NCBI GenBank assembly: GCA_021108275.1
Contig: JAIORD010000031.1
Span: 1 to 64,000 of the forward strand
DNA from: Methanococcoides sp.
Lineage (GTDB): Archaea; Halobacteriota; Methanosarcinia; Methanosarcinales; Methanosarcinaceae
Direction: 5' to 3'
Length of the DNA: 64,000 nt
Positions 43,844-48,635 of this stretch are shown here, piece after piece. Under the pieces are notes generated by a model. The model was not told where the DNA came from. It searched no databases and saw nothing but the letters and a program-made list of their open reading frames with translations. The position numbers and the translations under genes were made by a program. Numbering within the stretch: the first letter of the stretch is position 1; each line of letters starts with the position of its first letter.

Positions 43844-44153
43844 AAAAATATATTGAGAAGATAGCTACATTAATGCAAGTTACGCGGTAAATATGGCCCC
43901 TAATTAAAGCTCTCACATTTGAGAGAATTATATGATCATGACGATCTTTTTGGATCGAGTCATTTCAACAACAGCACAGCTTTCACCCCTTTTCAGAAAT
44001 GAGTATTGGATTAATATATCCAACTTACTTCTGAAATAATATTATTACAAAAAATAATACATTTACTATTAAATATTTATTTAAAGTAGAAGAAGTATGA
44101 CCATCTGCAAATGATTAGTTCCTTAAAAGAAGGAACATCTGGCAGGTGGCAAC
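43844..44153. other. Intergenic region with promoter for the interrupted gene
   Basis: 310 bases. AT-rich around 44050-44095 (ctattaaatatttatttaaag), a good TATA region for the gene at 44154, which is preceded by AGGTGG. No other gene seen. Confidence 0.45.
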
Positions 44154-44387
44154 ATGAAAAACGATGTCTTTTCGCTCCAAAAGAATGCACAGGGCCTAAG
44201 AACGAAGCTAGCTGCATTCTCCCATAGTGTGCTCTTGAAAAGGCCAATAAGATTCATCACACAATCAGCAGGAGACCCCTTGAGTCAGCTGGGAGAGGAA
44301 TGCGTCACTTTATCAGCTCTTGTCATGTTCTTATACCTCGTTTACTTCTGTTTAGACGTTACGCATATTACCTATACCGCGTAATAT

Positions 44388-45506
44388 ATGAATGTGGATA
44401 GAACCATCAAATTGAAACTGGACATGTCTGACGAAGGCAAAGAAAATCTCAAGCAAACAGTTGTGCTTTTCAACCAAGTTTTCAACGAGGTTGCTGAATA
44501 TGGTTTCAACAACCATACTCATAGCAAGGTATCTATCCATCATGCTACTTACAAAGACATTCGGAAACGACACCCTGAACTGCCGTCTTCGTTGGTCCAG
44601 GGTGCAAGAGACGTTGCATGCGAAGCTCTCAAAGGCGTTAAATTGAAAAGGCTTCCATCGAGCCATCCACATTCGGCAATTCGTTACAACAAAAGAGTTA
44701 TCCGTATTGTTTTCGAACACGGTTTTGCTACTGTTGCATCCATCCACGGCCGAGTAGATATATCTTTCAATATACCTGAATACTACAAACAATACATTGG
44801 ATGGAAAATTAGGAGTTCAGCTCTTAATTATAATCACCTGCAGGATGTGTTCTATTTGCACGTAACACTTCGTGTCGAATCTCCTAAACCGGTTGGCAAT
44901 ACTGTTCTTGGTATCGACCGAGGGATTGTCAATGTCGCGGTTTGTTCTAATAATGTCTTTTTCAATACGAGCAGCATCAAAAATACAAGAGCTAAATATG
45001 CATATCTGAGGAAGGAACTCCAGTCCAAAGGCACCAAATCTGCTAAACGTCTTCTTAAGAAGATCAGCAGAAAGGAAAGACGGTTTGTGACGGATGTTAA
45101 CCATTGTATTGCCAAAGATATTGTCAATATGCCCTTTGATGTGATTGCTCTTGAAGACTTGACTAGCATTCGCGTTCAGAAACGCAGAGGTAAGAACTTT
45201 AACAGGAAACTCAACAATTGGAGTTTCTATCAACTTGAACAATTTATCCGCTACAAAGCCGAAGCTGTGGCTAAACAAGTTGTTTCGGTTGACCCCAGAT
45301 ATTCCAGTCAAAAATGTTCCAAATGTGGACACATTTACAAAGGGAATCGGGATGGAAGTTCTTACCGTTGTCGTAATTGTGGATTTCAGATACATGCTGA
45401 TCTCAATGCTGCTCGAAACATAGCTCAGGCAGGTATATCTTGTCTGAGTAAGCTGACTGTCAACCAGCGAAATGTAGGGTTGAAAGTTGCACAAGATGCA
45501 ACTTAA
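44388..45506 (+). CDS. tnpB: RNA-guided nuclease TnpB (intact)
   Basis: 372 residues, a full-length TnpB. The RuvC catalytic acids are seen in GIDRGIVNVAVC (Asp), VIALEDLTSIRVQKRRG (Glu) and CGFQIHADLNAARNIAQ (Asp). The zinc ribbon is CSKCGH and CRNCGF. The N-terminal part holds HPELPSSLVQGARDVACEALKG of the helical RNA-binding domain. TnpB cuts DNA next to a target-adjacent motif using a guide from its own 3' end. No lesions are seen, so it is probably active. No TnpA in the window; it would need one in trans to move. Confidence 0.92.
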   Translation: MNVDRTIKLKLDMSDEGKENLKQTVVLFNQVFNEVAEYGFNNHTHSKVSIHHATYKDIRKRHPELPSSLVQGARDVACEALKGVKLKRLPSSHPHSAIRYNKRVIRIVFEHGFATVASIHGRVDISFNIPEYYKQYIGWKIRSSALNYNHLQDVFYLHVTLRVESPKPVGNTVLGIDRGIVNVAVCSNNVFFNTSSIKNTRAKYAYLRKELQSKGTKSAKRLLKKISRKERRFVTDVNHCIAKDIVNMPFDVIALEDLTSIRVQKRRGKNFNRKLNNWSFYQLEQFIRYKAEAVAKQVVSVDPRYSSQKCSKCGHIYKGNRDGSSYRCRNCGFQIHADLNAARNIAQAGISCLSKLTVNQRNVGLKVAQDAT

Positions 45507-45549
45507 TGATTCACTTACAAACCCTTTCCTTCAGGCAGGGGTAGTTGAC
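45400..45549 (+). ncRNA. Predicted omega RNA (3' end of tnpB)
   Basis: In this family the guide RNA spans the 3' end of tnpB and the right end. Here the hairpin CCCTTTCC-TTCA-GGCAGGGG (45522-45541, one mismatch) followed by TAGTTGAC marks the end, and the guide would be the bases after 45549, beginning ACGCAATAATGATGTA. The 5' boundary given is arbitrary. The call follows from known omega RNA architecture plus the visible hairpin. Confidence 0.5.
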
Positions 45550-45637
45550 ACGCAATAATGATGTATATATACAGTTCTCTGTCATCGGCATCTTTGTGAT
45601 CTTGGGTGCAGTGTTCGCATCTGCATATTTTTTATAA

Positions 45638-46419: not shown

Positions 46420-46860
46420 ATGAAAAAAGAATACATCCGTGACGGCCGAGCTCCAATACCCAAGTCAGATGTTACCTCCAGGGTAATGAGTGCGAATGTA
46501 GGGAAGAACACTAAGCCTGAACTCATACTTCGAAAGGCATTAAGAGATATCAGCATTCCAGGCTATCGCTTACATTGGAAAAAAGCAGTTGGGCATCCAG
46601 ATATAGCTTATCCGGGTAAAAAGATAGCCATATTCGTCAACGGCTGCTACTGGCATAGATGTCCTTTCTGTGACCTCCCCCTCCCAAAGTCCAACATCGA
46701 GTTCTGGACGAACAAGTTCAAGAAGAATATTGAAAGGGATGCAGAGAAGAAACGGAAACTTGAAGAAGATGGATGGAAAGTGCTGGTGTTCTGGGAATGT
46801 CAGATAAAAGAAAATGTGCAGAATTGTGCTAAAAAAGTAAAAGAACTGTGGGATAAATGA
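46420..46860 (+). CDS. vsr: Very short patch repair endonuclease (Vsr)
   Basis: 146 residues. Vsr nicks T:G mismatches made when 5-methylcytosine deaminates, restoring methylated sites. Features: RMSANVGKNTKPELILRKAL at the start, HPDIAYPGKKIAIFVNGCYWHRC (catalytic Asp and zinc-binding His/Cys), and WKVLVFWECQIKEN at the end. It converges with a C5 methyltransferase gene (35 bases apart), its expected partner. Confidence 0.93.
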   Translation: MKKEYIRDGRAPIPKSDVTSRVMSANVGKNTKPELILRKALRDISIPGYRLHWKKAVGHPDIAYPGKKIAIFVNGCYWHRCPFCDLPLPKSNIEFWTNKFKKNIERDAEKKRKLEEDGWKVLVFWECQIKENVQNCAKKVKELWDK

Positions 46861-46894: not shown

Positions 46895-48526
46895 TTACTT
46901 CAACTGTTTCACAAAATGATCACATGCATACAAGCCCGCTACTATCCTAAGCGGCACTTTTTCCCGATTGATTGCTACGTTTCCCCCTGAATTATCCACC
47001 ATGGCATTCTCATCAGGGAAATGTGCATCGATGATATCTCGCATCTTCTGCAAAGCCATCTCTGGAGTTATATCCTCAGTTTGACAACTGGAAACATAGG
47101 CCTTCTGCAAATCCATGGAGGTCGTATCGATTTCATCGAAAGTGCTTTTCACATCATTGATAAGATCATCAAATTTTGGGACCTCGCTTACCAATCCTAT
47201 AAGATCACATTCTTCAGGGCTGCACATCGTGGCATTCTTCCCACTACCTTGATGCAATACACAAGACCATTTTATATTTCCACTCTTGAAATCTGAGTTC
47301 TTGTTCGTAAGTTCAACACGGAAGCCCCTTATCTTGATATAAGGGATATGGATTGCAAATTTAGCATCTAGCATCTTATCTTTCTGGTCCTTTAGTTCTA
47401 TTTTAGTGCCCGTAAGATCGAACGAAGGTTTAGTGGCTGGCAAAGGTATGAACTCCATAGGAGGTTCAATGTTCTCTTTTTCGAGTATGGCTTTAGCTAG
47501 AGCAGATGAAAGTTTAGCACATACCGCATTGCCCACTAAACGATATTTAGAAGATTCATTACCTGCTTGGAACTGGTATGTGATCGGGAATGACATCATT
47601 GAAGCGATTTCCCTTATCGTGGGCAGTCTATATCCAATGTGTTTTCCATTCTCATCTATCGCTTCAAATATCATTGATTCACGCGTAGATGCAGATCTGG
47701 TGGCCATAACCGTCCTACTTGGCCTATCAAGGTTTTCGGGGAATGACATCTTGCCCATGAAACCATGGTCCTCTTTCATCCTTTTCGCTTTCTTCCACTC
47801 GAAATCTGCTACACGAGTATCATAAAAATGATCGGTCAGTGAATTGGAAGCTATAGAAAAACCATAGTTTGGATCAGTTATAGTACCCCCATTATCTCCT
47901 TCAAGGGGGTTCCCCAAAGAGTGCATGACCTCTTTCATTGTCAGCCAATCATCTTTATCCTTGCAAGTAGGAACAGGTGCAGGAAATTCGCCACACATGA
48001 ACCTTTTTCTTGCCTGGGGTGCACCATAATCTGCTGCATTAAAGACGTTGCTGACCTCCATTTTAAGATCAGGGCCCTCCCCAGGAAGACCTAGTTCCTT
48101 CCAAGTATATTTATCTTTAATGTACTTGCCTGCATTGGGAACATTTTCCAATATCCAATATTTTAATACGCCGCCCTTTTTGTACTTCTTCCAAGCGACT
48201 ATACGAAGATACGATTCGATCAGCTTTATTCCCAATGTCTTGTCTGCCTTTCCAGCATTATTAGAACCAGAAAAAGAAACACACGGAGGACTTCCTATAA
48301 TTACATCAACGTCTGGGATGTGCTCATCTATCTTTTCAGGAGTGTCCAATTCCAAGATATCCATCTTTACAGTATTACAGTCAGGATGGTTCAAATGATG
48401 AGTATCGATCGCGGGTTGCCAGTGGTCAAGAGCAAACACAATATCCAGATCGTTCTGACGGAAACCTTCAGAGAAACCGCCACCCCCACAGAAGAAATCA
48501 GCAACCTTTAATTTCGTTTTTTCCAT
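46895..48526 (-). CDS. DNA (cytosine-5) methyltransferase
   Basis: 543 residues from the ATG at 48524-48526. A longer frame uses a TTG with no support. Motifs in order: I VADFFCGGGGFSEGF, IV GSPPCVSFSG (catalytic Cys), VI WILENVPNAGK, VIII QARKRFMCGEF, then the target recognition region and X VGNAVCAKLSSALA. About 170 extra residues follow motif X, with several Cys, unlike simple enzymes of ~400. A TATA box (AAGATATATTAA) sits about 25 bases before the ATG, so the transcript is probably leaderless. Neighbours are vsr and a Sau3AI-like nuclease, which suggests a GATC specificity. Confidence 0.92.
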   Translation of the reverse strand: MEKTKLKVADFFCGGGGFSEGFRQNDLDIVFALDHWQPAIDTHHLNHPDCNTVKMDILELDTPEKIDEHIPDVDVIIGSPPCVSFSGSNNAGKADKTLGIKLIESYLRIVAWKKYKKGGVLKYWILENVPNAGKYIKDKYTWKELGLPGEGPDLKMEVSNVFNAADYGAPQARKRFMCGEFPAPVPTCKDKDDWLTMKEVMHSLGNPLEGDNGGTITDPNYGFSIASNSLTDHFYDTRVADFEWKKAKRMKEDHGFMGKMSFPENLDRPSRTVMATRSASTRESMIFEAIDENGKHIGYRLPTIREIASMMSFPITYQFQAGNESSKYRLVGNAVCAKLSSALAKAILEKENIEPPMEFIPLPATKPSFDLTGTKIELKDQKDKMLDAKFAIHIPYIKIRGFRVELTNKNSDFKSGNIKWSCVLHQGSGKNATMCSPEECDLIGLVSEVPKFDDLINDVKSTFDEIDTTSMDLQKAYVSSCQTEDITPEMALQKMRDIIDAHFPDENAMVDNSGGNVAINREKVPLRIVAGLYACDHFVKQLK

Positions 48527-48635
48527 GGTAAGTAGAAAGACGATTATTCTTAATATATCTTTTGATCGAAAGGACAAAAACCCTACAAAAATAATTTAGC
48601 CCAACATGCTTAGTAATTATAGATAGAAACTAATT

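What the first reader, a model, noticed from the sequence alone, without database searches (positions are those of the whole stretch)
44154..45637. Lone TnpB in a small membrane gene, with a reconstructable empty site, target motif and guide
Seen: cutting out 44363-45549 leaves 297 bases with one open frame of 98 residues and two membrane helices. The left junction is TTAC, a known target tetramer of the IS200/IS605 family (IS608). The right end is a hairpin followed by TAGTTGAC. Inference: the TnpB target motif is TTAC and the guide begins ACGCAATAATGATGTA. This is the sequence that would match the empty donor site. TnpB would then cut the empty site and favour copying of the element, as proposed for other TnpB proteins. 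The insertion looks recent because the broken gene can be restored base for base.
Basis: partly seen in the sequence, partly recalled or inferred. Interest (0 to 1): 0.75.

Follow-up and report, generated by a model that had tools for sequence, protein, structure and literature searches.

The report
Lone TnpB insertion with misread boundary

Summary
The element is real: an intact lone TnpB (372 aa, 44388-45506) of the IS200/IS605 superfamily in a Methanococcoides genome. The right end (hairpin, then TAGTTGAC to 45549) and the guide start (ACGCAATAATGATGTA, 45550) hold up. The left end does not. The element is 44258-45549 (1,292 bp), and its target motif (the TnpB TAM) is TTCAT at 44253-44257. 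Removing 44258-45549 gives a gap-free match to five uninterrupted orthologues. Nine other insertions have relatives with an exact empty NYCAT|guide site. The "98-residue two-helix membrane gene" is a chimera: 35 of its residues, including one helix, are element DNA. The real host is the 5' end of a ~1,377-aa surface-type protein gene (DUF7286) that has lost its middle here. Restoring a reading frame proves little: 62 of 208 possible cuts do so. Noteworthy: TTCAT is the complement of ATGAA. Across the clade 14 of 33 insertions sit just upstream of a start codon (background ~7%), and some left ends carry an antisense Shine-Dalgarno sequence. An ordinary new member, with one testable twist.

The parts
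44154..44257 (+). Host gene, 5' part: start codon and first ~34 codons of the orthologue of a ~1,377-aa protein (C-terminal DUF7286 in the orthologue)
   Evidence: gap-free alignment with five uninterrupted orthologues once 44258-45549 is removed; Pfam of the G004 orthologue
44253..44257 (+). Target motif / TnpB TAM, TTCAT (host DNA, kept at the left junction)
   Evidence: homology between the window copy and the G002 copy starts exactly at 44253; empty sites of other copies read NYCAT|guide
44258..45549 (+). Complete element, 1,292 bp, lone-TnpB IS200/IS605-superfamily insertion
44258..44387 (+). Left end (LE) plus tnpB leader; remnant of the subterminal LE hairpin, clear in relatives, degenerate here
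   Evidence: aligned left ends of relatives; DNA folding: relatives z -2.1 and -4.3, window +1.3
44388..45506 (+). tnpB, 372 aa; RuvC D177/E256/D338 and zinc ribbon C310, C313, C328, C331 present
   Evidence: Pfam PF07282, PF01385; NCBIfam NF040570 175.6 bits, cut-off 100; residue positions; dN/dS 0.13-0.19
45521..45542 (+). Right-end hairpin, the terminal stem of the predicted guide RNA (reRNA/omega RNA) scaffold
   Evidence: 9-bp stem in 16 relatives, 7 pairs with compensatory changes; 45400-45549 folds at z -3.4 as RNA
45545..45549 (+). Right cleavage sequence TTGAC, last bases of the element
   Evidence: TTGAC or a variant in all right ends; exact empty sites
45550..45569 (+). Predicted guide (ACGCAATAATGATGTATATA), host DNA
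   Evidence: first base after the right end; pairs with the empty site TTCAT|ACGCAATAATG by analogy with ISDra2 (PMC8612924)
45550..45637 (+). Host gene continued: signal-anchor helix (FSVIGIFVILGAVFASAYFL), ended by a stop where orthologues read on for ~1,300 codons
45638..45727 (+). 3' end of the next gene downstream (C-terminal hydrophobic tail), brought next to the host gene's start by a deletion of over 4 kb
   Evidence: match to the 3' region in G004 and G006 about 4.5 kb downstream

Best explanation
A lone-TnpB (IS1341-type) IS200/IS605 element of 1,292 bp (44258-45549) inserted 3' of TTCAT without target duplication, into the start of a surface-protein gene that now lacks its middle. 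The TnpB messenger's 3' end would be processed into a guide RNA whose scaffold ends at TAGTTGAC (45549) and whose guide is the flanking host sequence ACGCAATAATGATGTA... TnpB would use TTCAT as TAM and cut the empty donor joint TTCAT|ACGCAATAATG, so that repair from a copy holding the element restores it. Shown: boundaries, motif, intact catalytic residues, purifying selection on tnpB, conserved right-end hairpin, empty sites. Inferred from tested relatives: guide RNA, cleavage, retention. Movement would need a Y1 transposase (TnpA) acting in trans; none of the usual kind was found in this assembly.
For: The G002 copy (91% protein identity, unrelated site) is collinear with 44253-45547 and has TTAT at the proposed TTAC. 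Excision after TTCAT aligns without gaps to five orthologues; excision after TTAC leaves 35 extra codons. Nine other copies have relatives whose empty site reads NYCAT|guide: three in Methanococcoides, six in Methanoperedens. 30 related TnpBs form one fully supported group with NYCAT (21 TTCAT) against a TTTAT sister group. dN/dS 0.13-0.19. Right-end stem covaries. Mechanism: ISDra2 (PMC8612924); solo tnpB elements of Sulfolobus islandicus have TTTAT at the same place (PMC10640517).
Against: No biochemical or RNA evidence here. The window copy's LE hairpin is degenerate, so it may no longer be mobile. No relative keeps the exact window target with up to 3 mismatches, so its own empty site is read through diverged orthologues, not an identical allele.
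Confidence: 0.9

Rival explanations
1. One reading: element 44363-45549, IS608-like TTAC target, inserted in a 98-codon two-helix membrane gene.
For: TTAC is present and an open frame of 98 codons results.
Against: 105 bp left of the TTAC belong to the element in G002, where the tetramer is TTAT; orthologues lack those 35 codons; 62 of 208 cuts restore a frame; no related copy has TTAC at its left end.
Confidence: 0.01
2. The TnpB is a domesticated, immobile gene (for example a guide-RNA-directed regulator) and not an active homing element.
For: No usual TnpA beside any copy or in the complete genome G002; degenerate LE hairpin here; strong purifying selection.
Against: Copies lie at different sites in each genome with exact empty sites in relatives, so the lineage moves; RuvC residues D/E/D are intact, unlike nuclease-dead domesticated TnpBs (established knowledge of that family).
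Confidence: 0.08
3. On the start-codon habit of the clade: placement is only survivorship (insertions elsewhere are lost by selection) and the antisense Shine-Dalgarno in some left ends is incidental.
For: TTCAT is the complement of ATGAA, so start codons are a ready supply of harmless sites; the left ends with GGAGG come from few lineages.
Against: Sixfold excess at start codons, and left ends with a Shine-Dalgarno-like sequence are at start codons 9 of 13 times against 5 of 20 (p 0.015, not corrected for kinship).
Confidence: 0.7

Closest known systems
ISDra2 of Deinococcus radiodurans (IS200/IS605, TnpA+TnpB; PMC8612924)
   Same: TnpB family, insertion 3' of a pentanucleotide without duplication, motif doubles as TAM, guide is the right flank, right end followed directly by guide
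   Different: no tnpA in this element; TAM TTCAT instead of TTGAT; shorter protein (372 aa)
Solo tnpB elements of Sulfolobus islandicus (IS1341-like; PMC10640517)
   Same: archaeal, tnpB alone, conserved left and right ends, A+T-rich pentanucleotide at the left end
   Different: TTTAT there, TTCAT here; a TTTAT sister clade exists in the same class of archaea
IS608 of Helicobacter pylori
   Same: same superfamily
   Different: TTAC target tested here and not met; no tnpA

Membership tests
IS200/IS605 superfamily, lone-TnpB (IS1341) group | TnpB protein (OrfB_IS605 + Cas12f1-like TNB / zinc ribbon) | tested here: met
   PF01385 46.7 bits (cut-off 30.5), PF07282 85.6 (26.3); NF040570 175.6 (100)
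IS200/IS605 superfamily, lone-TnpB (IS1341) group | RuvC D-E-D residues | tested here: met
   GID 177, LED 256, HAD 338
IS200/IS605 superfamily, lone-TnpB (IS1341) group | insertion 3' of a conserved short motif, no target duplication | tested here: met
   gap-free empty sites, NYCAT
IS200/IS605 superfamily, lone-TnpB (IS1341) group | no tnpA in the element | tested here: met
   no Y1 transposase near any related copy by tblastn of the fetched loci
IS200/IS605 superfamily, lone-TnpB (IS1341) group | subterminal hairpin at the left end | tested here: inconclusive
   clear in relatives, degenerate in the window copy
RNA-guided TnpB nuclease | guide RNA overlapping the 3' end of tnpB, ending at the right end | tested here: inconclusive
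   covarying terminal stem and strong RNA fold; no transcript data
RNA-guided TnpB nuclease | TAM-dependent cleavage of guide-matched DNA | not testable with these tools
   needs biochemistry
IS608-type element | TTAC target motif at the left end | tested here: not met

The most novel reading that the evidence does not exclude
A clade of lone-TnpB elements in methanogenic and methanotrophic archaea has a target motif, TTCAT, that is the reverse complement of the start codon context ATGAA. It therefore tends to settle immediately upstream of start codons, and some of its lineages have evolved a left end whose antisense strand carries a well-spaced Shine-Dalgarno sequence (GGAGG or GGAG, 4-7 bases before the ATG). 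Insertion would then replace the ribosome-binding site it displaces and keep the host gene translated, which makes the insertion tolerable.
Probability: 0.2. Interest if true: 0.6.

Novelty: new member of a known kind. Interest (0 to 1): 0.33.

Why it matters
It corrects a boundary, a TAM and a host gene that would have misdirected any bench test: a TTAC target or a 98-aa gene would have failed. It shows how little a restored reading frame proves. It also defines, from ten insertions with empty sites in relatives, a TTCAT-type TnpB clade of archaea that I did not find described in the searched library. The link between TAM, start codons and a built-in ribosome-binding site gives a simple testable idea of how such elements stay harmless.

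Tried and rejected
Left junction at TTAC 44362, or at the second TTAC 44371: rejected. Membrane-gene reading: rejected, no Pfam or NCBIfam match to the 76-aa frame and 35 codons are element. Boundary in Methanoperedens after TCCTCC rather than after CAT: rejected by six empty sites. A helper transposase in the own genome: only a 271-aa Y1 protein that looks RAYT-like (my reading of its sequence and size) and a fragment were found; the complete IS605 in G001 carries a different TnpB. Search for an intact copy of the window's own target in the genus: none with up to 3 mismatches. Literature: no paper in the library ties TTCAT to a TnpB TAM; my memory that some bacterial TnpBs may use TTCAT could not be checked (one search was uninformative).

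Full report
What is there. The window lies in a Methanococcoides genome (Methanococcoides alaskense records match at 83-86%; window = G000:C12). ORF 44388-45506 is a full TnpB by Pfam and NCBIfam, with the RuvC residues and zinc-ribbon cysteines in place. It is related by sequence to solved TnpB and Cas12f structures. A second copy, 85% identical in protein, lies 28 kb further along the same contig.

The left boundary. Comparing the region with genomes of the same genus, the G002 copy is collinear with 44253-45547 at 90.6% identity although it sits at an unrelated site. The shared stretch starts exactly with TTCAT. Removing 44258-45549 gives MKND...LKRPIRFI|RNNDVYIQFSVIGIFVILGAVFASAYFL, which aligns without a gap to five uninterrupted orthologues (MKNE...LKKVSLLA|RNTDAYIPFSVIGIFVILGAVLTSAYF...). 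Frame restoration alone is weak evidence: 62 of 208 cuts do it, including another TTAC.

Independent empty sites. For three other Methanococcoides copies the joined flanks read straight through in relatives: TTCAT|GCCATCCCCAG (four close relatives, including this genome's own contig 10), TTCAT|ATATATTAGCG (G001, identical over 45 bases) and TCCAT|TTAAACATCC (G007). For six Methanoperedens copies the same holds with TTCAT, GTCAT and ATCAT. Together with the window's orthologues that is ten insertions. Hence left ends begin directly after NYCAT and right ends stop at TTGAC or a variant.

The clade. 33 left ends from Methanosarcinaceae, Methanoperedens, Methanomicrobiales and others all follow NYCAT. 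In a tree the 30 full-length ones form one fully supported side and six TTTAT elements the other. TTTAT is also what Sulfolobus islandicus solo tnpB elements show (PMC10640517). tnpB is under purifying selection (dN/dS 0.13-0.19). The right-end stem covaries at 7 of 9 pairs, and the 3' 150 bases fold better than shuffles (z -3.4). The left-end hairpin is strong in relatives but degenerate in the window copy.

The host gene. The orthologue is a ~1,377-aa protein with an N-terminal signal anchor and DUF7286. In the window a stop follows the anchor, and the 3' end of the next gene, about 4.5 kb downstream in G004 and G006, follows directly. So a deletion has removed most of both genes. Whether the deletion or the insertion came first cannot be told. 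Near relatives have also lost or rearranged this locus.

Start codons. TTCAT is the reverse complement of ATGAA. By one fixed criterion (reading frame of at least 60 codons starting at that ATG and at most 30 open codons before it; the second test could not be applied to L092), 14 of 33 insertions lie immediately upstream of a gene start. The background is 7.7% of NYCAT sites in Methanococcoides and 6.8% in the flanks of the same loci (p about 1e-8, kinship not corrected). Survivorship is the simplest cause. In Methanoperedens and in one Methanococcoides lineage the element's first bases, read on the other strand, are GGAGG or GGAG 4-7 bases before the host ATG, and the empty sites show that these bases are element DNA. 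Elements with such a sequence are at start codons 9 of 13 times, others 5 of 20 (p 0.015). The window copy is not one of them: it lies inside a frame and has no such sequence.

Mechanism. Following ISDra2 (PMC8612924), excision leaves TTCAT|ACGCAATAATG..., which the TnpB-guide complex would cut next to its TAM, favouring repair from the copy that holds the element. A gene-drive effect of this kind has been reported for IS200/605 elements in plasmids (PMC11870625). This is inferred here, not shown. The Y1 transposase that once moved these elements is not next to any copy and was not found in the complete genome G002.

Verdict. The element and guide stand; the TAM, left end, host gene and recency claim do not. 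A new member of a known kind, with a modestly interesting start-codon habit in its clade.

Noticed in passing
L065 (G002:C1:838370-840056) against L137, L138, L140: In G002 an element sits exactly between two NYCAT sites that relatives keep ~743 bp apart: a host segment, apparently a gene starting at the second site, has been lost precisely from one target motif to the other. Possibly aberrant excision at an upstream target motif.
   Followed up: partly
window 44075-44100 and L056 near 9500 (G001): At the homologous place in G001 another IS605-like right end (hairpin, TAGTTCAC) abuts AGTAGAAGAAG, where the window has TTTAA|AGTAGAAGAAG: a likely empty site of a second element type with a TTTAA motif.
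   Followed up: no
G000:C10:60455-60855 (L114): This genome carries the empty site (TTCATGCCATCCCCAG) that matches the guide of the G002 element, a natural cross-strain target upstream of a gene for an endonuclease-IV-like protein (name from my reading of its start).
   Followed up: partly
window 46420-46860 and 46895-48577: Vsr-type mismatch endonuclease next to a C5-cytosine methylase, oriented towards each other, a short way downstream of the element.
   Followed up: no
L059:9185-9297 (G008) and L061:6304-6343 (G007): Left-end sequences of this element family without a close tnpB match in those genomes: remnants or small non-autonomous copies.
   Followed up: no
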